From NCBI RefSeq assembly GCF_001953745.1, contig NZ_LWLN01000001.1, forward strand, positions 1,550,001 through 1,614,000: DNA of 64,000 nucleotides, written 5' to 3'. A program made the position numbers and the translations under genes. The notes under the pieces are model-generated. The model was not told the DNA's origin, made no database searches, and saw only the letters and a list, made by a program, of their open reading frames with translations. How positions within the stretch are numbered: position 1 is the stretch's first letter; each line of letters starts with the position of its first letter. The stretch comes from Natrinema saccharevitans. Its GTDB lineage: Archaea; Halobacteriota; Halobacteria; Halobacteriales; Natrialbaceae. Of the stretch, positions 3,954 through 64,000 are shown in pieces.

Positions 3954-4024
3954 GAGCAGAAATCGGCTGGGGAAGGTGTGGCTTTTCGGTGTTGCCACGA
4001 TCAGCCCTTCACAAAGCCGTTAGT

Positions 4025-46274: not shown

Positions 46275-47246
46275 ATGACCGAGAACTTCCCCGACTACGT
46301 CGACGTCGATTACGACGACGGCAACGGCGAAGACCCCGAAGACTACCAGCACATTCAGGACAAGATCGAGAAGGCCATCGAGGTCACCCGCGAGGGGCTC
46401 GAGGCCTACGAGAACCCGGCCGTGATGTGGACCGGCGGCAAGGACTCGACGCTGACGCTGTACTTCATCAAGGAGGTCGCCGACCGCTTCGACCTCGAGG
46501 TACCGCCCGCGGTCTTTATCGACCACTACCAGCACTTCGAGGGGATCCACGACTTCGTCGACCACTGGGCCGACGAGTGGGACCTCGAGGTCATTTACGC
46601 GCGCAACGAAGACGTCGGCGAGTACGTCGACGAACACGGTCTCGAGCCCGGCGACGACATCGAGATCTCCGAACTCTCCGAGCACAACCAACATCACGTC
46701 CGGGAGATCCTCGAGTACGAGGAGGACACTTTCCCGTTCCTGCTGGACACCTACGTCGGCAACCACCTGCTGAAGACGGTCGCGCTCAACGACGCCCTGG
46801 AGGAGTACGACATCGACGGCGTCATCTCCGGCGTCCGCTGGGACGAACAGGAGGCCCGCGCCGACGAGACGTTCTTCTCGCCGCGACACGACCCCGACAT
46901 CTACCCGCCCCACGACCGCATCCAGCCCATCCTGCAGTTCGACGAGGCCGCCGTCTGGGAGGCCTTCTGGAACTTCGTCGTGCCGGACACCGTCGACGAG
47001 TTCCCGGAAGAGGGCTACGTCCCGGAGGCCGATGACGACCTCCCCGAGGGTGTCACCCAGGACGACGTTCCGATCTCGCCGAAGTACTTCGCCGGCTTCC
47101 GCTCGCTGGGCAGCGAGGTCAGCACGGAAAAGAGCGACGAGGACCCCGCCTGGCTTCAGGATCTCGAGGGGACGACCGAACGCGCCGGCCGCGCCCAGGA
47201 CAAGGAGGACCTGATGGAGCGACTGCGCGATCTGGGTTATATGTAG
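46275..47246 (+). CDS. PP-loop protein of the CysD/CysH family, cysteine-free
   Basis: A 323-residue ATP pyrophosphatase-type protein. The PP-loop is VMWTGGKDSTLTLYFIK near residue 50. The C-terminus EGTTERAGRAQDKEDLMERL resembles ATP sulfurylase small subunit CysD (SERQGR...). No cysteine occurs anywhere in the protein, so the C-terminal catalytic Cys of PAPS reductases is absent and a reductase role is unlikely. It may activate sulfate or another substrate. No cysN-type gene is adjacent. Confidence 0.8.
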   Translation: MTENFPDYVDVDYDDGNGEDPEDYQHIQDKIEKAIEVTREGLEAYENPAVMWTGGKDSTLTLYFIKEVADRFDLEVPPAVFIDHYQHFEGIHDFVDHWADEWDLEVIYARNEDVGEYVDEHGLEPGDDIEISELSEHNQHHVREILEYEEDTFPFLLDTYVGNHLLKTVALNDALEEYDIDGVISGVRWDEQEARADETFFSPRHDPDIYPPHDRIQPILQFDEAAVWEAFWNFVVPDTVDEFPEEGYVPEADDDLPEGVTQDDVPISPKYFAGFRSLGSEVSTEKSDEDPAWLQDLEGTTERAGRAQDKEDLMERLRDLGYM

Positions 47247-47333
47247 GGTGGTACGGCCGGCTTGACACCCTTCAAATTACACCGCCAAATGCATAATTAG
47301 ACTTATACTTTTTCGGTTTTGATTATATGAACA

Positions 47334-48200
47334 CTATGTTTCACCTTCTGCATAAACGCTAAAGTGTCCAGCTGGCAGCTCATCCTGATATAAATCATAA
47401 TCGTTCTGACTTCGGAAATGGGTGACTCCATTGATTGCATTAGTGCTAGATACACTCCCTTTTCCATCGAATTTGATTTTATGTCTTCCTGACTGACCAG
47501 TATCAATTTCACTAGTAGAGAATTCGCCATCTTGGATCTCGGTAGATCCACTGATACTAATGGTCGGTCCGCCTTCAAGTCCGACTTCAAGTCCGATAGA
47601 AACGGGACGGTTATTTTTATCTATTGTCCTAGTCGGCGCCCAATTCGATAAATACACGCTATCTTTTTTCACATTAACTCTGTTTGTAAAGGAAGTATAG
47701 GCCCAGATTTCTTGCGCCTCAGCTTTTGACCAAAGCCACATCATATAGTGATAATAGCCGTCATTATCCCGTTCTTGAGACTTATACAACATTGCAGTAT
47801 TTTCCACCTTAGCGTAATCAACTCCCAGCGCATTAGTGATTGAATAATCATAATCTGCACCACCGACAGGATCCAGATTATTCACACCATCTGCTGCTTC
47901 TTGCGTCGGACGCACCTGTAGTGATTTCCCACTAATAGTTCCTGGAGCGACAGCTGTGGGAGAAATGTTTGTATCGTCGGTAGCTTCAAGAGCAACTTTG
48001 GTCATTTCATCGGGAGATTTCATGTTTTCTGGACTTAATTCGAGAGAAATACTTCCTGTCCCTGTGGGCCGTTCCTCTTTGGCTTCTTCGCCTTGATCGT
48101 CAGTATCACTGGCGGACGCCACACCGGGAAGCCCAACAGCCGTAAGACCGCAAAGCGACTTCACTACTTTTCTCCTCTTGGTTGGATTGTTTTCAACCAT
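47334..48200 (-). CDS. AT-rich secreted protein, unknown
   Basis: A 288-residue protein from ATG 48200 (MVENNPTKRRKVVKSLCGLT), with a twin-arginine-like KRRKVVKSL and a hydrophobic stretch ending PGVASAS, so probably exported. The mature part has strand-rich segments (YHYMMWLWSKAEAQEIWAYT; RPVSIGLEVGLEGGPTISI). GC and codon use differ sharply from the neighbouring PP-loop gene: third positions favour A and T. It stands in an AT-rich stretch from about 47250 to 48350, so recent transfer is likely. Family not recognised. Confidence 0.7.
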   Translation of the reverse strand: MVENNPTKRRKVVKSLCGLTAVGLPGVASASDTDDQGEEAKEERPTGTGSISLELSPENMKSPDEMTKVALEATDDTNISPTAVAPGTISGKSLQVRPTQEAADGVNNLDPVGGADYDYSITNALGVDYAKVENTAMLYKSQERDNDGYYHYMMWLWSKAEAQEIWAYTSFTNRVNVKKDSVYLSNWAPTRTIDKNNRPVSIGLEVGLEGGPTISISGSTEIQDGEFSTSEIDTGQSGRHKIKFDGKGSVSSTNAINGVTHFRSQNDYDLYQDELPAGHFSVYAEGET

Positions 48201-48352
48201 ATATATGATAAACACATTTTTGGTATTATATTTTTCTTAATTATTATATGTGCCTATAATGATGTTTGGGCCATCTTCCCTGCCCCCGGAATAAAATATT
48301 GTATCCACCACTCCGAATTAAATTGTTACGCAACTATATGCAGAAGGGTATA

Positions 48353-48541
48353 CTAGTTGGTGGCGCGGTACTCGCCGTGTTTGATGCCCAAAAGAGTCAT
48401 TATTAATCCAAATACAATCATCGACGGCGCAACCATCATCAATACCGTGTCCGTTCCCATCGGCGTAGCGAACATGCCCCCGATACCGATCCCGATCACG
48501 ACGAGAAACGCGACTGCGGTCTTTGGAAGATCGAACTCCAT
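48353..48541 (-). CDS. Small two-helix membrane protein, DUF7333-like
   Basis: A 62-residue protein, MEFDLPKTAVAFLVVIGIGI followed by VLMMVAPSMIVFGLIMTLLG and a charged HGEYRATN tail. It matches a small, frequent haloarchaeal family of unknown function. Normal GC despite the AT-rich island next to it. Confidence 0.72.
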   Translation of the reverse strand: MEFDLPKTAVAFLVVIGIGIGGMFATPMGTDTVLMMVAPSMIVFGLIMTLLGIKHGEYRATN

Positions 48542-53464: not shown

Positions 53465-53492
53465 CCCGGGGCAGCCTCAGTAGGAAACGCGT

Positions 53493-54835: not shown

Positions 54836-55963
54836 ATGGACGACTTCATCGACCGGTTCGGGGCCGAGCGCGTCTGGGCCGCGACCGTCGCCACGCTCGT
54901 GGCCGTCGTCGCCCTCGGGGCAGTGGTCTTCCCCCAGCGGGTGTACGTCGAGTTTATTTGGCAGTACTTCTGGGGGCCCGTCGTCGCCGACGCACACAGC
55001 TGGAACTGCGTCGCCTGGGCCGGCGGCGAACAGGTTCCCTGTAACGAGGCCGCCGCCGACGCCGGACCGACGGCCGAACCCGGCTACACGTTCGTCTCCT
55101 ACGCCGGCTACATCCCCACGCTGGTCCTGTTGCTGATCGGGATCATCTTCCTCGTGCGCCGGCTCGAGATCGAGCGCTACCGTGCGGGCTTTTTCGCCCT
55201 GTTCCCGTTCATGCTCTTTGGCGGGGCCCTGCGGGTCGTCGAGGACGCCAACGCCGCCGCCTACGAGTACTCCGGCGAGATGGCCATTCAGCTGCCGTGG
55301 TCGGGCTTTATCATCAGCCCGCTGATCTACTTCACCGTCTTCTTCATCGCGCTCTTTGCGGTCGTGACCTCGGTCTGGCTCGAGCGCAACGACTACGTCT
55401 CGGGCTACGAGTATCCCCTGGCCGGCATCGGGACCGCCGTGCTGACGGTCACGATCGCGCACCTCGCCTACACGGCGGCGACGGAGCCGTATTCGGAGTT
55501 CTATCCGTTGATCCCGCTGGTCGTCCTCGTCGGGGCGACCGTCGCGACGGCGATCACCTGGGTCGGCCTCAAGCGGTACGCGCCGGAACTGAACCGCGGC
55601 ACCCGGAACATGGGGATCGTGGTCATCTGGGCTCACGCGGTCGACGGGGTCGCGAACGTGATCGGCCTCGACTGGGCGACGACGCTCGGGCTCCCGGCCA
55701 ACCTCGTCCCGAAACACCCGATCAACCGGGCGATCGCCAACACGACCGCGGACGTGTTGCCCGCGGGCGTGGTGTCGGCGACCGGCTCCGCGTGGCCGTT
55801 CCTGCTGGTGAAACTCGCCGCCGCCGTCTTCGTCATCTGGATCTTCGACGAGACGGTCTTCGAGGACAGCCCGCGCTACGCCGTCTTGCTCATGATCACC
55901 GTCGTCGCCGTCGGTCTCGGGCCCGGGACCCGCGACATGCTGCGAGCGACGTTCGGCGTCTAA
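54836..55963 (+). CDS. DUF63-family polytopic membrane protein
   Basis: A 375-residue euryarchaeal membrane protein with about nine helices ([55 protein letters not shown]). [13 protein letters not shown] after helix 3 and [16 protein letters not shown] are conserved phrases of DUF63. The role is unknown. It follows the IMPase gene by 95 bases and is followed by the truncated NOP5-like gene 75 bases on; in other haloarchaea DUF63 lies near NOP5/fibrillarin genes, which I recall but cannot confirm here. Confidence 0.82.
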
Positions 55964-56038: not shown

Positions 56039-56317
56039 ATGAGTGATACGGACGGGTGGTTCGCGGCCGGGGACCGCGACGATCACGACGCGACGGCGAC
56101 CGCGGTCCGCGAGGGAAGCGCCGACGAGCCCCGCAACTGGCCGCGTCTCGCGCTCGAGGACGGGTTCGCGAGCGATACCGACGAGTACTACGACGCCCTC
56201 CGCGAGGCGACGACCGAGGCGACTCGGACCGCAGTGACCGAACGCGAGCGAGCCGACGACCGCCAGCTCGTCCACGCGATCAGAGCCATGGACGACATGG
56301 GACGAATACTATTATAG
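56039..56317 (+). pseudogene. Truncated NOP5/NOP56-like gene (N-terminal part only)
   Basis: A 92-residue frame, MSDTDGWFAAGDRDDHDATA, then NWPRLALEDGFASDTDEYYD and ERADDRQLVHAIRAMDDM. This matches my memory of the N-terminus of haloarchaeal NOP5/NOP56, the C/D-box RNP scaffold, where AMDD is followed by a long helical and NOP domain (ERTANELAERV). Here it ends MDDMGRILL at a stop, where composition drops and the CRISPR island begins. It is best read as a gene cut by insertion; a distinct small protein cannot be excluded. Confidence 0.5.
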
Positions 56318-56570
56318 AATCAGTGGCTCTGTTGAGAGCCTTAACCGGTGATACATTAGAGAGCGATCGGTAAGTACAGGCGAAGTAGGTAGCGGAGCGA
56401 CTATCTCTTTATCTGGAATCTATCAGAAATTGCGTGCTGAATACAGAGCGTTTATCCAGCAAACCAATTCGTGAGGTCAAATTTATTTGCGCTAAACTTT
56501 CCACTCGTTGTATTCACGACGTAAAGAGGAGACACCTACAACTTAGACTCGGTCTATTGGAGATCTGCTG
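56318..56570. other. AT-rich junction of the CRISPR island
   Basis: Composition falls from the GC-rich core to AT-rich from about 56300. A perfect inverted repeat GGCTCT-GTTG-AGAGCC (56325-56340) stands close to the junction; its first ten bases resemble the ends of IS6-family elements (GGCTCTGTTGxAAA-type). No transposase frame is present. No gene seen. Confidence 0.45.
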
Positions 56571-56715
56571 CTAAACGAGCAATCTACTAATTCGAGGAGG
56601 AGTTGAACAGACCGCCAATTATGTCGGCATATTAGAAGACGGTCTACGAGAAGACAACGAGAAATACCGACCCAAAACCCAATCCGCCTCTCAAGACCTC
56701 GCAGAAAACCCCTAA
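56571..56715 (+). pseudogene. C-terminal fragment of an unknown AT-rich gene
   Basis: One frame reads TSNLLIRGGVEQTANYVGIL then EDGLREDNEKYRPKTQSASQ and ends DLAENP at TAA 56713-56715. It has no start codon after the preceding in-frame TAA, but reads as protein. It looks like a 3' gene end left by rearrangement. Family not recognised. Confidence 0.35.
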
Positions 56716-56722
56716 ACCCAAA

Positions 56723-57082
56723 TCAATTATATGCTTCCTTGTAGGCTTCCCTCAGAACCTCTAAGGTGTCTTGTATCTCCTCTTCCGTTGGTTTGTACTC
56801 GAATAGAAGGTGGTCGATCTCGTCCGCACTCGATTCATCAAGCACAGGCTTGCGTTCATCATCCTCATCAAGATAGACCTCAAGGAAATACCACTTAATG
56901 CCATTATCACCTACCTCATAATCTACTTCACCAGTGAAGTTCTCACCGTTAATAGTAAGCTCCGTCTCCACACCAAAGATGCCATGATCTCCAGCGTATG
57001 GGTCTATAGAAACAGGTTCAACGCCTTTGGTTCGTACTTGATCAAGGAACTCATCTAGGTTCTCGTCTCCTGTGGACTCCAT
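56723..57082 (-). CDS. Small acidic orphan protein beside the cas operon
   Basis: A 119-residue acidic protein from ATG 57082 (MESTGDENLDEFLDQVRTKG). The middle is beta-rich (PYAGDHGIFGVETELTING; DNGIKWYFLEVYLDEDDER), and the last 30 residues form a helix (EEEIQDTLEVLREAYKEAYN). AT-rich codon use sets it apart from cas genes. It is divergent from the cas operon across a 393-base spacer, so co-regulation is possible. No family recognised; a regulatory or anti-CRISPR-like role would be speculation. Confidence 0.65.
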   Translation of the reverse strand: MESTGDENLDEFLDQVRTKGVEPVSIDPYAGDHGIFGVETELTINGENFTGEVDYEVGDNGIKWYFLEVYLDEDDERKPVLDESSADEIDHLLFEYKPTEEEIQDTLEVLREAYKEAYN

Positions 57083-57475
57083 ACATCATTCGGAGAGTGG
57101 TATGCTTATGAAACTATTTGTGAACTTCGTGGAGTCATACTAACTACCCCCAACCCCCTCGAATCTATTGGTGCACAATATGCGCTATGTATTCAGCATG
57201 GCTCTACCAACATCATCGATAACTGATGGAAGTGTCAGCGTTAGATTCGCAACCCACTAGCGCCTGCTTCACCCCAAATAGTGTCTAACCAATAGGGTTT
57301 CAAGAGAGTCGAATCAGTGGTTCAGTCCCGCTCCGAGTTTTCCCTAGTGTGACTGAAGCTAGTTTCAAACGGATCTTTTTGGTTTTCACTTCATTCTGCT
57401 ACAATCACATTTATGATGATGTAATTAGTAAGCGTATCACAATGACATAATGACACGGAATAGGGAGATACACGA
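57083..57475. promoter_or_regulatory. Divergent promoter region of the cas operon
   Basis: A 393-base AT-rich spacer between the orphan gene and cas6. A TATA-like TTTATGATGATG lies near 57410 on the plus strand, about 60 bases before cas6; GGGAG (57463-57467), 8 bases before ATG 57476, looks like a Shine-Dalgarno site. I saw no repeated 29-37-base units, so it is not a CRISPR array. Confidence 0.5.
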
Positions 57476-58282
57476 ATGCGAGTGATAGCACACCTGCAAG
57501 CGCGCGCGGACACAGCCTACGACAACACGTATCATCACAAGCTTCGGGGCCGGATCTGGAACGCGCTTGACGGGACTGAATACGACGAAATACACGATGA
57601 GGATCGTCCGAAGGGATTCACGTACAGCAATCCGTTCCCGCCGGGAGACATGAGAGAGGGCGACCAGCGAACGTTACTCGTGGCGTCACCACACGAGGAA
57701 CTGCTCGCCAACGTCGCTGCCGATCTCAAAGACGACCGGGAGTTAAATATCGGCGAGATGCCCTTCCACGTCGATTCGGTCAACGGGCTGGCAACTGACG
57801 TAGGCGAACCGGGTACGTCAGGCACAATCGAGACGGGGACGGGCGTGCTGGTTCGGATCCCGCCGTGGCGTTTCGAGGAGTACGGCATCGACACCGACCA
57901 CGACGAGGCGGAGTTCTGGCGACCCGAACACACGATGGAGCCGTTCCGCAACCAGATCGAAAACAATCTCGACAAGAAACACGACCTGTTTTGTCCCGAT
58001 TACTTGCCCGGACCGTCCAAGACCGACGGCGATCTGTTCGATGGCGCGGACCTGATCAAAACGTTCTCGATCCCGGTGACCGTGACACAGGGCCAACGTG
58101 AGACGTGGGTATTGAGCAAATGGCGGTTCGACTACACCGTCCGCGATGACCACCACCGACGCCACCTGAATCTCGCACTCGACACCGGCATCGGCGAACG
58201 GAATTCGCTCGGGTTCGGGTTCGTCAACATCACCGAGAAAGAGGACCAGCGATCGGGCCGGAGGGAACGCGTCGATGCTTGA
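57476..58282 (+). CDS. cas6: Cas6, type I-B crRNA-processing endoribonuclease
   Basis: Cuts the pre-crRNA within the repeat to make crRNA. 268 residues. The N-terminal ferredoxin-like fold opens MRVIAHLQARADTAYDNTYH, with a catalytic-type histidine in YHHKLRGRIW; the C-terminal Gly-rich loop is RNSLGFGFVNITEK near residue 240, a hallmark of Cas6 (GIGERNSLGFGFV). ATG 57476 has a Shine-Dalgarno site. It overlaps cas8b by 8 bases, so the operon is co-translated. Confidence 0.93.
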   Translation: MRVIAHLQARADTAYDNTYHHKLRGRIWNALDGTEYDEIHDEDRPKGFTYSNPFPPGDMREGDQRTLLVASPHEELLANVAADLKDDRELNIGEMPFHVDSVNGLATDVGEPGTSGTIETGTGVLVRIPPWRFEEYGIDTDHDEAEFWRPEHTMEPFRNQIENNLDKKHDLFCPDYLPGPSKTDGDLFDGADLIKTFSIPVTVTQGQRETWVLSKWRFDYTVRDDHHRRHLNLALDTGIGERNSLGFGFVNITEKEDQRSGRRERVDA

Positions 58283-60395
58283 TCCTAACGAGTTCTACGA
58301 CGAGTACCCACCCGAGCGACTGGAAGACGAACTCCCGGAGCGACCGATCTCGTCGCTCCGAGGTATCCAGCACCTCTACGGTCGCCTGTACACGCTGGCG
58401 ACGGCCGGTGGCGGCGACTACGCGGCGTATCTGACCCCCGACCAGGCTAACGACCTGATCGGCGCGGAAGAGAGCCTGATCGTCGTCCGAGTCGATCTCT
58501 CCGGCGACCGACCCGCACTCGACGCAGATGAGCCCGTCAAGATTACCCAGTACGCCGACGATCTCATTCAGAAAGTCGCCCACTGTAAGTATAACGCCGC
58601 GCGCGGGATTGATCACAGCGTTACCCACCGCTCGGGACGCAACAGCGATCCTGAGAAGTTGGCCCGCTACGCCTGCGAGCGCCTGACCAAGTGGGCGACT
58701 GACGATGTCGTCCAGGATGTTGCCGACGAACATCCGGATGGAGAGGTCATTCGCGGGCTGGCAACCGTCGGCGAAGAGGAATCGAACCTCGATCGAATCC
58801 GGTCCGCAGTCAAGGCCGAACTCGGCGGTTCGACTACGGCACTCCTAACCGTACAGGTCCGACGAGAAGCGAGTGTGGACTACGAGTGGCCCGGCGACGT
58901 ACCAGTGTTCAACGAAGCGATGCGTGCACGAAAGCTCTCGAAACTGGTCTCGAAGGGACAGGCGACGAACTCCGCTGGTCAGGCCACCGATCTGATCAGC
59001 GGTGAGCGCACCCGAACCGTCGGCACTGCGGAGGACCCTCTCAACTACTTCCTCGGCAAGCAGATGGAGAAGTTCCCGGGATTAGATCCGGACGAAGCGT
59101 GGCGGAGCCACCCTATCTCCGAAGACGGGGCAGTCACGCTGATGAACGCCGAGGAGTTCGTCGACGCCTGTTCCTACCGGACGTTTAACGCCGATGTGTA
59201 TTACCTCCCGTACTTCCTCGGTCGGCCGACGCCTGCGGAGGCCTACAACCTGTATGCGGCGCTTCACAGCGTCACACAGGCCGACGACATGGGCCCGGTC
59301 CAGACGCTCTACGACGAGTTGGGTGATCACGAAGCGAATTCCGAGGGCCGACTGCGATTTTACGTCGCAGCGGTCATGAAACACCAGATGTCCCGCTTCG
59401 ACGTGTACGGTGAGACGCTGAACGGGCGGATCCACTACCCCACCGAAGTCGGGGAGCGACACGAACAGATCACGGGAAGTTGGGTCTTCGACGAGAACGA
59501 CGACAGGAACAGAAATCGAACACCACCGATGCCCTCCCACGAGGAGTGGTCGCTCACCACGTATCAGGATTTCCGAGAGATGATCGGATCGGGAGCCTAT
59601 CTCTACCGGACGTTCCCCTTCACCGACGAGGACACCGATGCGACGGTCGACGACGAGCGAATCGATGTCCACGTCTCGATACTTGCCGGCGACCCCGTAC
59701 CACGGACCCAGCTTGTCAGCGCCTACGTCGAGCGACTGCTCGATCGGGACGGTGACGACGTGCCGGAACTCCTGATCGCCTCCCAGTTCGCACAGTTGTG
59801 CGCGCTCGAAAACGCCGATCTCGTGACGACGGACGCCGGCGATACCGAATCGACACTGATCGACGGTCCCGATTACGACACCATGGAACCAGAACACGCG
59901 CGAACCGACGGCGGCACGGCCGCCCTCGATCGCACCGAGAAGCTCGAATCGTTCATCGAACAGACGGACGGTCTGGACGACCCCGAACGGAAGGGTGCGT
60001 TCCTGCTCGGTACGCTCGTCGGCCAAGTCGGCACCTACCAGCAGGGCTACCACGACCGGTCGACGACCGTCATCGACCAGTATCCGATCAAGTCGATGAC
60101 CAAAACCAAGGTCAAGCGTATCACCCAGGAGGTAATCGACAAAGACGTCGTCTACTCCCGGGAGATGGCCAAGAAAGGATCGAACATCAACTCGACGATG
60201 TATAAAGAAGTCACGAACGCCATCGTCGAAACCATGGCCGGAAACGATCCGTCGGGCTGGGAGATCAGCACCGACGATCTGCGCTTCTACTACGCCCTCG
60301 GCCTGACCTACGGCATGAACGACCGATCGACGAACAAGGACGACGCAACGACCGACGACGAAACCACCGACGAATCCCCCGATACCAATGAGTGA
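58275..60395 (+). CDS. cas8b: Cas8b (Csh1), large Cascade subunit
   Basis: Large subunit of type I-B Cascade, which in Haloferax takes part in PAM recognition and interference. 706 residues; haloarchaeal Csh1 is about this length. The opening MLDPNEFYDEYPPERLEDEL and AEESLIVVRVDLSGDRPAL are typical, followed by a central HCKYNAARGIDHSVTHRSGR, and a C-terminal helical bundle (SMTKTKVKRITQEVIDKDVV, then WEISTDDLRFYYALGLTYGM). It overlaps cas7 by 8 bases. Confidence 0.9.
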   Translation: MLDPNEFYDEYPPERLEDELPERPISSLRGIQHLYGRLYTLATAGGGDYAAYLTPDQANDLIGAEESLIVVRVDLSGDRPALDADEPVKITQYADDLIQKVAHCKYNAARGIDHSVTHRSGRNSDPEKLARYACERLTKWATDDVVQDVADEHPDGEVIRGLATVGEEESNLDRIRSAVKAELGGSTTALLTVQVRREASVDYEWPGDVPVFNEAMRARKLSKLVSKGQATNSAGQATDLISGERTRTVGTAEDPLNYFLGKQMEKFPGLDPDEAWRSHPISEDGAVTLMNAEEFVDACSYRTFNADVYYLPYFLGRPTPAEAYNLYAALHSVTQADDMGPVQTLYDELGDHEANSEGRLRFYVAAVMKHQMSRFDVYGETLNGRIHYPTEVGERHEQITGSWVFDENDDRNRNRTPPMPSHEEWSLTTYQDFREMIGSGAYLYRTFPFTDEDTDATVDDERIDVHVSILAGDPVPRTQLVSAYVERLLDRDGDDVPELLIASQFAQLCALENADLVTTDAGDTESTLIDGPDYDTMEPEHARTDGGTAALDRTEKLESFIEQTDGLDDPERKGAFLLGTLVGQVGTYQQGYHDRSTTVIDQYPIKSMTKTKVKRITQEVIDKDVVYSREMAKKGSNINSTMYKEVTNAIVETMAGNDPSGWEISTDDLRFYYALGLTYGMNDRSTNKDDATTDDETTDESPDTNE

Positions 60396-61440
60396 ACACT
60401 ACCCCACTGTCTCGAACAGATCCGAGATCGTCTTCGCGTACGACGCAGTCGACGCGAACCCCAACGGCAACCCCCTCAGCGGTGCGAACCGACCGCGGAT
60501 CGACCCCCATACGGATCAAGCAATCGTCACCGACGTTCGCCTCAAGCGCTACCTACGGGATCAGCTACAGGACGACGGCCACGGCGTCTACATCCGCAAC
60601 GTCAAGGAAGACGGCGATCAGGCGACTCGCGAGGATCTCCTCAAGGCCCGGCTCAAAGACCTCGACCTCGACGATGTCGACGAGGATGACATCGAGAACG
60701 CCGTCTTCAGTCAGTTCCTCGAAAACAGCGCCGACATCCGCTACTTCGGCGCGACGATGAGCGTCGACATGGATGACGAGAAAGTCGACCACCTTCCGGA
60801 TCACTTCACTGGTCCCGTTCAGTTCTCACCCGGCAAGTCGCTCCACCGAGTCATGGAGAACGAGGAGTACAACAGCCTCACCAGCGTCATCGCGACCGGC
60901 GACGACAAGGCACAGGGCGGGTTCGACCTCGACGACCACCGGATCCAGTACGCCTTCATCGGGTTCCACGGACTCGTCGACGAACACGGGGCCGAAGACA
61001 CGCTCCTGTCGGATCGGGACGTGCGGCGGCTGGACACGCTGTGCTGGCGTGCGCTGAAGAATCAGACGATCAGTCGGAGCAAGGTCGGACAGGAGCCCCG
61101 GCTCTACCTCAGAGTCGAGTACGCCGACGAGAGCTTCCATCTCGGCGGGCTCGATCAGGACCTCAAGCTCGACAGTGAGGAATCCGATCCCATCGAGGAA
61201 CTCCGAAATGTCCGCGACATCTGTGTCGACATGTCGGCACTGCTCGAGCGCCTCGACGGTGCGTCCGATCGGATCGACACCGTCCACGTCGTCGCCAGCG
61301 ATGTCCTCGAAGTCTCCGTCGACGGTAAGACGGGCGGCCACGAGTTCCTCTACGACGCCCTCGAATCGGTGGTCGGTAGTGAATCCGTCCGGGTGATTGA
61401 TGTGTACGAAGATGCGAAAGCGACCGCGCCGGAGGAGTGA
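60388..61440 (+). CDS. cas7: Cas7 (Csh2), Cascade backbone subunit
   Basis: RRM-fold protein that forms the helical backbone along the crRNA. 350 residues. The family motif DAVDANPNGNPLSGANRPRI and TDVRLKRYLRDQLQDDGHGV near residue 15-60 match csh2. Later QFSPGKSLHRVMENEEYNSL and GFHGLVDEHGAEDTLLSDRD, with a glycine-rich C-terminus. Cas5 follows after three bases. Confidence 0.94.
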   Translation: MSEHYPTVSNRSEIVFAYDAVDANPNGNPLSGANRPRIDPHTDQAIVTDVRLKRYLRDQLQDDGHGVYIRNVKEDGDQATREDLLKARLKDLDLDDVDEDDIENAVFSQFLENSADIRYFGATMSVDMDDEKVDHLPDHFTGPVQFSPGKSLHRVMENEEYNSLTSVIATGDDKAQGGFDLDDHRIQYAFIGFHGLVDEHGAEDTLLSDRDVRRLDTLCWRALKNQTISRSKVGQEPRLYLRVEYADESFHLGGLDQDLKLDSEESDPIEELRNVRDICVDMSALLERLDGASDRIDTVHVVASDVLEVSVDGKTGGHEFLYDALESVVGSESVRVIDVYEDAKATAPEE

Positions 61441-61443
61441 CCT

Positions 61444-62232
61444 GTGACCGAGCACGCACCGGCCGGATCGGAACTCCCCGATGGCGCTGAGACGTGCCTG
61501 TCGTTCACGGTCAGCGGACCCTGGGGACACTTCCGGCGTATCGAGGGTAACATTGTGAAACAGACGTACCGCGTCATCCCGCGGACCACTGTCGCCGGCT
61601 TGATCGCGGCGATGCTGGGCATCGAACGCGACGGCTACTACGACCTTTTCGCCCCGGGTGAGTCGCTAGTTGCAATCGAACCAACGAGCGAACTGCGGAC
61701 GATGAAGCTACCGATGAACACGCTCTCGACCGCCGACGAACACATGGCGTCGCTAAACCCTCGCGGAAAACTTTCCATCAAGCTTCCCGATCCGTCCAAG
61801 CCCCGACAGCAGCACAACTACGAGGTCCTCGTCGATCCTGCCTATCGGATCGACGTGTGGCTCGACAACGACGAGCGGTACGACCAACTCCGCTCACTGC
61901 TCGAATCGGGTGAATCGTACTACGTTCCAAGCCTCGGTCTCTCTGAGTACCTGGCGACAGTCGATTACCACGGTGAGTTCCCGATCGAGCAGGGACCCGA
62001 CGGTGACACGGTAGCTATCGACTCGACCGTCCCCGAAGCCGTCGACTCGATCGTTCCCGATCCGGAGACACGCTACCAGATCGAGCAGACGCCCGCGTTC
62101 ATGGAACGCGACGACGGTGGTCGGACGACCAGCGCGTTCGTCTCCTACGCCTACAACCCGGACGGTGGCTCGCTCACATTCACTGACGTGGCGACGTACT
62201 CAGTGGATGATCGGACCGTGGTGTTCACCTGA
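61444..62232 (+). CDS. cas5: Cas5 (type I-B), crRNA 5' handle-binding subunit
   Basis: Small RRM-fold Cascade subunit binding the 5' handle. 262 residues with GTG start (MTEHAPAGSELPDGAETCLS). SFTVSGPWGHFRRIEGNIVK and PRTTVAGLIAAMLGIERDGY are the Cas5 signature near residues 27-60; LGLSEYLATVDYHGEFP is a late strand. Its TGA overlaps the cas3 ATG by one base. Confidence 0.93.
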   Translation: MTEHAPAGSELPDGAETCLSFTVSGPWGHFRRIEGNIVKQTYRVIPRTTVAGLIAAMLGIERDGYYDLFAPGESLVAIEPTSELRTMKLPMNTLSTADEHMASLNPRGKLSIKLPDPSKPRQQHNYEVLVDPAYRIDVWLDNDERYDQLRSLLESGESYYVPSLGLSEYLATVDYHGEFPIEQGPDGDTVAIDSTVPEAVDSIVPDPETRYQIEQTPAFMERDDGGRTTSAFVSYAYNPDGGSLTFTDVATYSVDDRTVVFT

Positions 62233-64000
62233 TGGTGGATACGCCGATTTCTCATCCCGCCGAGGACGGTGACGAGGCGACCTTGCTCCTCGATCACCTA
62301 AACGAGGTGGCCGAGCGGGCCGAGTCCGTCGTCTCCACAGATGCAACGACGATCGGCGACGACCCGCTCACCGAGATGGTGGCCATAGTGGCACGATGTC
62401 ACGACTTCGGGAAGGCGACGACGTGGTTCCAGGAGTACGTGGTTGATGAGCGAGACACCAGCAAGCGGACGAACCACTCCCTGTTCGGGGCCTATCTCGG
62501 GTACTACGTCCTCGATCGGTTGGGCTACGACAGCGAGGACTGTCTCGCGGCCTTCGTCGCTCTCGCGAAACACCACGGTCGTCTCCCCGATACGGAGGAA
62601 TACGTCGAAGGAGTTTCGCGCTTCGACAACAAGAGCGAGGCGAGCAACGAGCGCCAACGAGTCGTGATCGAACAGGTCGAGAATGTCAATGACCGTCGCC
62701 GGACGTTCGCGCGATCGTTCGTCTCTGACGCTACCGACGGTAACGGGTCGTGGGAGGAGTTCGCCGAGAAGATCAACGATGCGGACGACTCCCTGTTCGA
62801 TACCGTCTACGATCACGTCTCCATGTTCGGTTTCGGCAGCGACCGCTCGGCACCTTCCGACGAGTTCTACGAACTGCTCCTCCAGCTTTGGAGTGGGCTG
62901 ATTCTCGCCGACAAAACGGTGGCTGCCGGTGTCGAGGACGGTGATCTCGACGCATCCGAGCCGGATACTCGTACGCTCTCGGAGTACATCGCCGACCTAG
63001 GAGGAGATACCGACGGAGACAGTCAGGAGGACGCTCTCGATACGCTCCGTGACGAGGCGAGAGACGACGTACTCGACGGTGTCGAGCAGTTCCGCGACTC
63101 GGATACGTCGATCGCAACGCTGACACTACCAACCGGGATGGGCAAGACGCTGACCGGTCTCAATGCTGCTCTCGCACTCCGAAACGAGAGTGAACGGGTC
63201 GTCTACGCATTGCCTTTTACCTCCGTCATCGATCAGGTCGCCGACGAACTCACGGACGTGTTCGATACCGACGCTCGAGACGACCTGTTGACGATCCACC
63301 ACCATCTGGCCGAGACGGTGACGAAACTCGGTGATCCAGATGACGATCCCGACGAGCATGCCCGACTCGCGGAGATGGTCGCCGAGAGCTGGCGCTCCGG
63401 GATGACGCTCACGACGTTCGTCCAACTCTTCGAGAGCCTCGTTGGCCCGAGTAACACCCAGTCGATGAAACTGCCGGCGCTGTACGATTCCGTGATCGTG
63501 CTGGACGAGCCCCAGGCATTGCCAATGGAGTGGTGGAAGCTCGTCCGCCGAATCACGACGATCCTCACAGAAGAGTACAACGCGACGATCATCGCTATGA
63601 CTGCGACCCAGCCGGCGACAAACGACGAGGATGCGGCGTCTCAAGCCCTGTTCGACGACGCGTTCGAACTGGTCAACGACGTGGATAGATACTTCGATCA
63701 CTTCGAACGAGTCGAGTACGACATTCATGATTCTGTACTCGCGTTCGACGACACTGACGCAACAGTAGACTACGAGACCGCTGGCCGGACGATCCTCAAC
63801 GAGACCGGCGAGACCGAGTCGGTACTCGCGATCTGTAACACCATCGACAGCGCCACCGAACTCACGGATTCGATCGAGGAACGCGAAGCGGTCGTCGACG
63901 TTGGTCGGTGTCTCGAGTTGGAACTCGACGATGACGGAGCTGACGTGGACGCTCTCGTCAAACGGGTCGAGGCGACGCTCGGTTCGAACGAACGAGCACT
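62232..64000 (+). CDS. cas3: Cas3 nuclease-helicase (type I-B, 3' end beyond window)
   Basis: Unwinds and cuts target DNA recruited by Cascade. ATG 62232 opens MVDTPISHPAEDGDEATLLL; 589 full codons are visible. The HD nuclease domain has ARCHDFGKATTWFQEY near residue 55 and FVALAKHHGRLPDTE near 110. The helicase has Walker A TLPTGMGKTLTGLNAALAL near 300 and motif II VIVLDEPQALPMEW near 420, with MTATQPATN as motif III. Both nuclease and helicase parts appear complete to the window edge. Neighbouring cas4, cas1 and cas2 are expected beyond it. Confidence 0.93.
   Translation, partial: MVDTPISHPAEDGDEATLLLDHLNEVAERAESVVSTDATTIGDDPLTEMVAIVARCHDFGKATTWFQEYVVDERDTSKRTNHSLFGAYLGYYVLDRLGYDSEDCLAAFVALAKHHGRLPDTEEYVEGVSRFDNKSEASNERQRVVIEQVENVNDRRRTFARSFVSDATDGNGSWEEFAEKINDADDSLFDTVYDHVSMFGFGSDRSAPSDEFYELLLQLWSGLILADKTVAAGVEDGDLDASEPDTRTLSEYIADLGGDTDGDSQEDALDTLRDEARDDVLDGVEQFRDSDTSIATLTLPTGMGKTLTGLNAALALRNESERVVYALPFTSVIDQVADELTDVFDTDARDDLLTIHHHLAETVTKLGDPDDDPDEHARLAEMVAESWRSGMTLTTFVQLFESLVGPSNTQSMKLPALYDSVIVLDEPQALPMEWWKLVRRITTILTEEYNATIIAMTATQPATNDEDAASQALFDDAFELVNDVDRYFDHFERVEYDIHDSVLAFDDTDATVDYETAGRTILNETGETESVLAICNTIDSATELTDSIEEREAVVDVGRCLELELDDDGADVDALVKRVEATLGSNERA

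What the first reader, a model, noticed from the sequence alone, without database searches (positions are those of the whole stretch)
56039..56722. A NOP5/NOP56-like gene cut at the edge of the CRISPR-Cas island
The 92-codon frame at 56039 reads like the first part of haloarchaeal NOP5/NOP56, then stops within a few codons of AMDD, exactly where composition switches from GC-rich core to AT-rich. Immediately after come a perfect GGCTCT/AGAGCC inverted repeat and a start-less gene end. If the match is right, acquisition of the island broke, or displaced, a scaffold of C/D-box rRNA methylation, which should be costly unless a second copy or the rest of the gene lies beyond the island. The homology is from memory.
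Basis: partly seen in the sequence, partly recalled or inferred. Interest (0 to 1): 0.62.

Follow-up and report, generated by a model that had tools for sequence, protein, structure and literature searches.

The report
Mobile CRISPR island splits, rebuilds nop5
The gene stump is the old front half of the RNA-modification gene nop5, displaced when a 20-kb mobile island carrying a CRISPR defence system inserted at a fixed point; the island carries its own substitute front half, so the gene is rebuilt as a hybrid, and related islands use the same spot in at least four families of salt-loving archaea.

Summary
The 92-codon frame is the host's own 5' half of nop5 (56% identical over 84 aa to the N-terminus of the genome's only intact Nop5). 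The intact gene, followed by fibrillarin, lies 20,255 bp away, just beyond the island. A 14-bp direct repeat (GAGCCATGGACGAC) marks both ends. The intact gene is a hybrid: an AT-rich, island-borne 5' half with its own TATA-like box, fused in frame to the host's GC-rich 3' half. Joined flanks match an uninterrupted nop5 locus in another Natrinema. The same split, at the same codon, occurs in eight other haloarchaeal genomes; the nine span four families. The associated tyrosine recombinases form one clade, and element N-halves group apart from their hosts. Here only the integrase's last ~77 residues survive, so this copy is probably immobile. Much of the cargo is anti-virus defence: type I-B CRISPR-Cas (with the genome's only cas1), phosphorothioation-type, DISARM-like and restriction genes. 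I found no report of nop5 as an integration site. It is a known kind of element (gene-restoring integrative island) with a new target. Excision and hybrid-Nop5 function are untested.

The parts
54836..55963 (+). Host DUF63-family gene, the left flank that is also next to nop5 in the uninterrupted locus of N. thermotolerans
   Evidence: Same gene order DUF63-nop5-fibrillarin in CP031304
56039..56317 (+). Stump: host's own nop5 5' half (56039-56296) read on into the island to a stop at 56315-56317; left junction (attL)
   Evidence: 84-aa match to the intact Nop5; GC3 0.89; contiguous with the host 3' half when flanks are joined
56283..56296 (+). 14-bp direct repeat GAGCCATGGACGAC, att core; second copy 20,255 bp away inside the intact nop5 (76538 in window numbering, C1:1626538)
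56303..56312 (+). CGAATACTAT, left arm of the inverted repeat whose partner ATAGTATTCG lies at the right end of the island; also supplies the end of the stump's frame
   Evidence: Perfect 10-bp arms in reconstructed attP; identical left end in G054 and G064, near-identical in G372
56723..57082 (-). 119-aa ORF of unknown function in the AT-rich left end of the island
   Evidence: No significant Pfam or NCBIfam match
57476..58282 (+). cas6 (cargo)
   Evidence: TIGR01877 over cut-off
58275..60395 (+). cas8b/csh1 (cargo)
   Evidence: TIGR02591 over cut-off
60388..61440 (+). cas7/csh2 (cargo)
   Evidence: TIGR02590 over cut-off
61444..62232 (+). cas5b (cargo)
   Evidence: TIGR02592 over cut-off
62233..64000 (+). 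cas3 (cargo), runs off the window; cas4, cas1, cas2, the CRISPR array, the integrase remnant and the hybrid nop5 follow beyond the window end (up to 77181 in window numbering)
   Evidence: cas3 inferred from gene order and sequence, not scanned; cas4/1/2, array, integrase remnant, hybrid nop5

Best explanation
The region is the left junction (attL) of an integrative genetic element that inserts by site-specific recombination at the RAMDD codons (86-90) of nop5. SHOWN by sequence: (1) 14-bp direct repeats bound a 20,255-bp insert; (2) the right end of the insert encodes a replacement first 90 codons of nop5, preceded by a TATA-like box and fused in frame to the host's 3' half, with fibrillarin downstream; (3) the same break at the same codon occurs in eight other genomes, nine in four families; (4) the integrases of these elements form one clade; (5) element N-halves have a history different from their hosts. 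INFERRED: a tyrosine recombinase, helped by two co-operonic small proteins (a DNA-binding-like one and one resembling the integrase's core-binding part), recombines attP (ATAGTATTCG...ATGGACGAC...CGAATACTAT) with attB in nop5. Because the element supplies a 5' half, integration leaves a hybrid, probably working Nop5 and costs little. In this genome the integrase has decayed to its last ~77 residues, so the island is probably locked in, keeping a type I-B CRISPR-Cas system with at least 126 repeats as cargo.
For: Single intact nop5 20 kb away with fibrillarin; 14-bp repeat and GC3 mosaic; joined flanks align over 2,188 bp at 91% to an uninterrupted locus; stump plus full gene in G054, G064, G372, G358, G417, G403, G341 and G241, all cut at MDD; attR motif in 20 of 392 genomes, reversed control in 0; integrase next to or within a few kb of the element's nop5 half, one clade at 100/100; integrase remnant 87% identical to G358 in this island; trees of the two gene halves disagree; dS 0.03-0.09 in the element half against 0.51-0.58 in the host half of the same gene; TATA-like box before most element halves; inverted arms around the core in five of nine reconstructed attP sites.
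Against: This copy has no complete integrase. No excised circle, plasmid or virus form was found. Four of nine reconstructed attP sites lack a clear inverted repeat. Some genomes with an attR-like motif show no stump or integrase. Function of the hybrid is untested; the N-half tree rests on 90 columns.
Confidence: 0.93

Rival explanations
1. nop5 was duplicated, or a second nop5 came in by ordinary transfer, and the window copy is a decaying paralogue; the cas genes merely lie between the two copies.
For: Two N-terminal copies do exist and are only 56% identical.
Against: The stump ends exactly at the shared 14-bp core, no second 3' half exists in the genome, the stump joins the host 3' half seamlessly against an uninterrupted relative, and the same break recurs in other families with an integrase.
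Confidence: 0.03
2. The CRISPR-cas cluster itself, or homologous recombination at nop5, created the junction, and the integrase remnants are incidental.
For: Cas1 is an integrase-type enzyme, and the cas cluster fills the island here, in two other Natrinema genomes and in G403.
Against: Elements without CRISPR-Cas sit at the same codon (G358, G341, G372, G417). The common parts are the integrase, the nop5 half and the att arms. The integrases near nop5 are one clade.
Confidence: 0.03
3. The insertion broke nop5 and the cell lacks working Nop5.
For: The host's own 5' half is cut off from its 3' half.
Against: A complete in-frame 299-aa Nop5 with a TATA-like box and downstream fibrillarin is present, and the 3' half shows low dN/dS between species (0.13).
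Confidence: 0.01

Closest known systems
dusA-associated genomic islands of Proteobacteria (Farrugia et al. 2015, PMC4482086)
   Same: Tyrosine-recombinase islands that enter one conserved gene near its 5' end, replace the 5' end and its promoter with their own, and carry highly variable cargo.
   Different: Bacterial; target is a tRNA-modification enzyme gene; excision shown by PCR there, not here. The piece replaced here is larger in share (about 90 of 299 codons). Integrase homology between the two groups was not tested.
SNJ2-type integrases of haloarchaeal pleolipoviruses (described in the review PMC8371274)
   Same: Haloarchaeal tyrosine recombinase in an operon with two small accessory genes.
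   Different: SNJ2 uses the end of a tRNA gene; this clade is linked to nop5. No tblastn match of the nop5 integrase in 50,697 phage records; I did not have the SNJ2 sequence to compare directly.
Other archaeal integrations in protein genes (HMG-CoA reductase by virus BJ1; efflux gene; AsnC regulator; review PMC8371274)
   Same: Protein-coding attB in archaea.
   Different: Reported in the review as single cases; here one gene is hit repeatedly across four families by related integrases, with the gene rebuilt.
Type I-B CRISPR-Cas of haloarchaea
   Same: cas6-8b-7-5 and cas1b over curated cut-offs, cas4 and cas2 by Pfam, array of at least 126 repeats.
   Different: Nothing unusual in the system itself; notable is its place as cargo of a site-specific element.

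Membership tests
Gene-restoring integrative element (tyrosine-recombinase genomic island) | Direct repeats (attL/attR) at both ends | tested here: met
   14-bp repeat 20,255 bp apart
Gene-restoring integrative element (tyrosine-recombinase genomic island) | Empty site in close relatives | tested here: met
   Joined flanks align to the uninterrupted N. thermotolerans locus
Gene-restoring integrative element (tyrosine-recombinase genomic island) | Target gene restored by element sequence | tested here: met
   Hybrid 299-aa nop5, GC3 0.54 in the 5' half against 0.89 in the 3' half
Gene-restoring integrative element (tyrosine-recombinase genomic island) | Own complete integrase | tested here: not met
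   Not in this copy: only the last 77 residues remain. Complete in relatives G358, G400, L058, L059
Gene-restoring integrative element (tyrosine-recombinase genomic island) | Excision as a circle | not testable with these tools
   No free form found in plasmid, phage or viral collections
NOP5/NOP56 | N-terminal domain homology (the stump) | tested here: met
   84-aa match to the intact Nop5; Pfam N-domain only sub-threshold
NOP5/NOP56 | C-terminal Nop (RNA/L7Ae-binding) domain | tested here: not met
   Absent from the stump; present in the hybrid gene (PF01798, 138.9 bits)
Tyrosine recombinase (phage integrase) | PF00589 catalytic domain in element integrases | tested here: met
   PF00589 39.3 bits and PF02899 27.2 bits, both over cut-off, in G358
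SNJ2-type integrase family | Sequence similarity to IntSNJ2 | not tested
   IntSNJ2 sequence not at hand; no phage match by tblastn
Type I-B CRISPR-Cas | Cas8b/Csh1, Cas7/Csh2, Cas5h, Cas1b | tested here: met
   TIGR02591, TIGR02590, TIGR02592 and TIGR03641 over cut-offs
Casposon (Cas1 acting as integrase) | Stand-alone Cas1 outside a CRISPR-cas operon | tested here: not met
   Cas1b lies between cas4 and cas2 in a full operon with an array

The most novel reading that the evidence does not exclude
Haloarchaea have a dedicated family of nop5-targeting 'defence shuttles': elements that spread CRISPR-Cas and other anti-virus systems between families by swapping the front half of a core RNP protein. 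Each insertion then tests a new Nop5-fibrillarin pairing, and some hybrids become permanent after the element is lost (candidate scars in G257 and G410), so the elements have reshaped box C/D RNP evolution.
Probability: 0.3. Interest if true: 0.8.

Novelty: new variant of a known kind. Interest (0 to 1): 0.62.

Why it matters
It gives a concrete vehicle for the patchy spread of whole CRISPR-Cas systems in haloarchaea: nop5 elements with type I-B cas genes were found in three lineages (Natrinema, G403, Halobellus), one of them with an intact integrase trio. It identifies a conserved RNA-modification gene as a recurrent integration site in archaea, where the review consulted lists protein-gene sites only as single cases. 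It warns that short 'NOP5' ORFs can be insertion stumps and that Nop5 trees can mislead, because the two halves of the gene can have different histories. It also offers a natural test of how freely the front half of Nop5 can be exchanged.

Tried and rejected
G075 seemed to hold a second N-half; the duplicated stretch starts at a Nextera adapter sequence (CTGTCTCTTATACACATC), so it is an assembly artefact. Second hits in G042/G048 are weak and probably paralogues; those in G383 are two pieces of one gene. The NOP5 hit on a Natrinema 'plasmid' is the ordinary locus on a 987-kb replicon and served as the empty site. A casposon and a tRNA target were considered and dropped: cas1 is in a full cas operon, and the only tRNA in the window, at 53492, is 2.7 kb away. 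The GGCTCT hairpin is not shared by the related islands. The first integrase tree used wrong strands for several rows and was discarded; one search replaces it. The AlphaFold model of the hybrid was poor (mean pLDDT 51), so I make no claim about a domain boundary. A 14-base left-arm scan of viral contigs was too unspecific. Literature searches for nop5 with integrases or islands found nothing relevant, but only open-licence papers are held.

Full report
WHAT IS THERE. The window is bases 1,550,001-1,614,000 of contig 1 of a 3.98-Mb genome. The frame at 56039-56317 is 92 aa. The genome holds one Nop domain, at C1:1626669-1627106, in a 299-aa nop5 (76282-77181 in window numbering) followed by a fibrillarin gene. 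The frame is 56% identical over 84 residues to the start of that protein. The last residues before the break, RAMDD, are conserved even in a crenarchaeal NOP56 (chain 3id5_A).

THE JUNCTIONS. GAGCCATGGACGAC occurs at 56283 and again at 76538, inside the intact nop5, 20,255 bp apart. The sequence left of the first copy (GC3 0.89) and right of the second (GC3 0.89) is GC-rich host nop5. The 5' half of the intact gene, which lies on the island side, has GC3 0.54. Removing the insert and joining the flanks gives a sequence that aligns as one stretch over 2,188 bp at 91% to the uninterrupted DUF63-nop5-fibrillarin locus of Natrinema thermotolerans A29. So the insert is precise, and the intact gene is a hybrid of an island-borne 5' half and the host 3' half.

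NOT AN ISOLATED CASE. A profile of the N-half was run over 125 family and 392 order genomes (the samples overlap). Besides the window genome, eight have a full gene plus a stump ending at the same place: G054 and G064 (Natrinema), G372, G358, G417 and G403 (family f4), G341 (f5) and G241 (f6). In seven of the nine, both halves are on one contig, about 1 to 20 kb apart. The element-side sequence just before the core, CATAGTATTCG, is shared across families. The motif CATAGTATTCGNGCNATGGAYGA (up to two mismatches) is in 20 of 392 genomes; its reversed control is in none. The opposite island end carries CGAATACTAT or a degenerate form, giving perfect 9-11 bp inverted arms in five of nine reconstructed attP sites.

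THE ENZYME. A tyrosine recombinase of about 363 aa (PF00589 + PF02899) lies within 1 kb upstream of the element's nop5 half in G372, G358 and G241, up to several kb upstream in G341, G400 (Halorubrum californiense), Halorubrum sp. Atlit-26R and Halobellus captivus, and as a broken gene in G054. In G358 its stop is only a few bases before the nop5 ATG. Two small genes usually precede it: one looks like a DNA-binding protein with a coiled coil (read by eye), and the other aligns with the integrase's own core-binding part. The window genome keeps only the last 77 residues, 87% identical to G358, and has no relative of this integrase at E below 1e-60 anywhere. The seven nop5-linked integrases form one clade (100/100) against seven high-scoring relatives that lie elsewhere.

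HORIZONTAL ORIGIN. A tree of the 3' halves follows host families (f1 100/98, f5 98/92). In the tree of the 5' halves the stumps of G054, G064 and G372 sit with relatives of their hosts, while the element halves of G000, G054 and G064 group with one from family f7 at 100/99, and f4 and f5 element halves group together at 97/84 (only 90 columns, many forks weak). Within one gene, G000 differs from G054 and G064 by dS 0.09 and 0.03 in the element half but 0.51 and 0.58 in the host half. The element half therefore most likely arrived after these species had diverged. Uninterrupted G051 lies next to G054, which fits separate insertions or later excision; which is not resolved.

EXPRESSION. Most element N-halves have a CATATA-like box about 25-33 nt before the ATG, as expected for leaderless haloarchaeal transcripts (function inferred). 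The host's own TTTAAT-like box stays with the stump. Whether the stump, which would be a free Nop5 N-domain, is made is unknown.

CARGO. In the window genome the island carries type I-B cas6-8b-7-5, a cas3 judged by gene order and sequence only, cas4, cas1 and cas2, and an array with at least 126 repeats at 67013-75275 in window numbering. Its cas1 is the only one in the genome. N. gari has a related locus with about 117 repeats. G403 has an independent, inverted type I-B locus with 49 repeats. Halobellus captivus has cas3-4-1 and 51 repeats a few kb before an intact integrase trio; its left stump was outside the DNA fetched. Other elements carry PbeA/PbeC and a methyltransferase (G358), McrA-like and Mrr-like genes (G341), and a DrmB-like protein with a methyltransferase and nuclease-like genes (Halorubrum Atlit-26R). 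The defence bias is an impression from the elements examined, not a tested enrichment.

COMPARISON. Integrases that enter a conserved gene and give back the replaced end are well known; dusA islands in bacteria replace the 5' end and supply promoter sequence. A 2021 review of archaeal tyrosine recombinases names three protein-gene targets, none of them nop5. I found no paper linking nop5 to integration, within an open-licence library. I therefore call it a new variant of a known kind.

LIMITS. Nothing here shows activity: no excised form was found, the hybrid protein is untested, and the structure model was too poor to use.

Noticed in passing
L038 (G075:C62:20000-28000), about 3985-4005: nop5 of this Natrinema genome holds an in-frame partial duplication that starts at a Nextera adapter (CTGTCTCTTATACACATC): an assembly artefact in a public genome, not biology.
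   Followed up: yes
L046 (G257), L048 (G410) and L049 (G277), nop5 N-halves: AT-rich element-type nop5 5' halves (GC3 0.38-0.45) with the exact CATAGTATTCG motif but no second N-half in the genome; G257 and G410 also show no integrase within about 18 kb upstream: possible scars of lost elements. For G277 the contig ends just upstream.
   Followed up: partly
L088 (G129:C30:91932-96017): A related integrase (not of the nop5 clade) ends a few dozen bases before a HAD-like phosphatase gene whose first codons are AT-richer than the rest: a candidate second protein-gene target for the wider integrase family.
   Followed up: no
L086 and L084, end of the integrase gene: In G241 and G358 the TATA-like box of the element's nop5 half falls inside the codons for the integrase C-terminus (RIYKLGV), so coding and promoter sequence overlap.
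   Followed up: partly
window 58275-62232 and L034: Between this genome and N. gari the cas genes show dS 0.20-0.46, clearly above the 0.09 of the element's nop5 half: cas cargo and integration end may have different ages.
   Followed up: no
window 47000-48500: A second AT-rich patch (GC about 0.44-0.48) with a 293-aa ORF on the minus strand that looks secreted, possibly another insertion.
   Followed up: no
window 56320-57440: The left end of the island (about 1 kb) does not align with the G054 or G064 islands and holds only short or broken frames: decayed or replaced sequence.
   Followed up: partly
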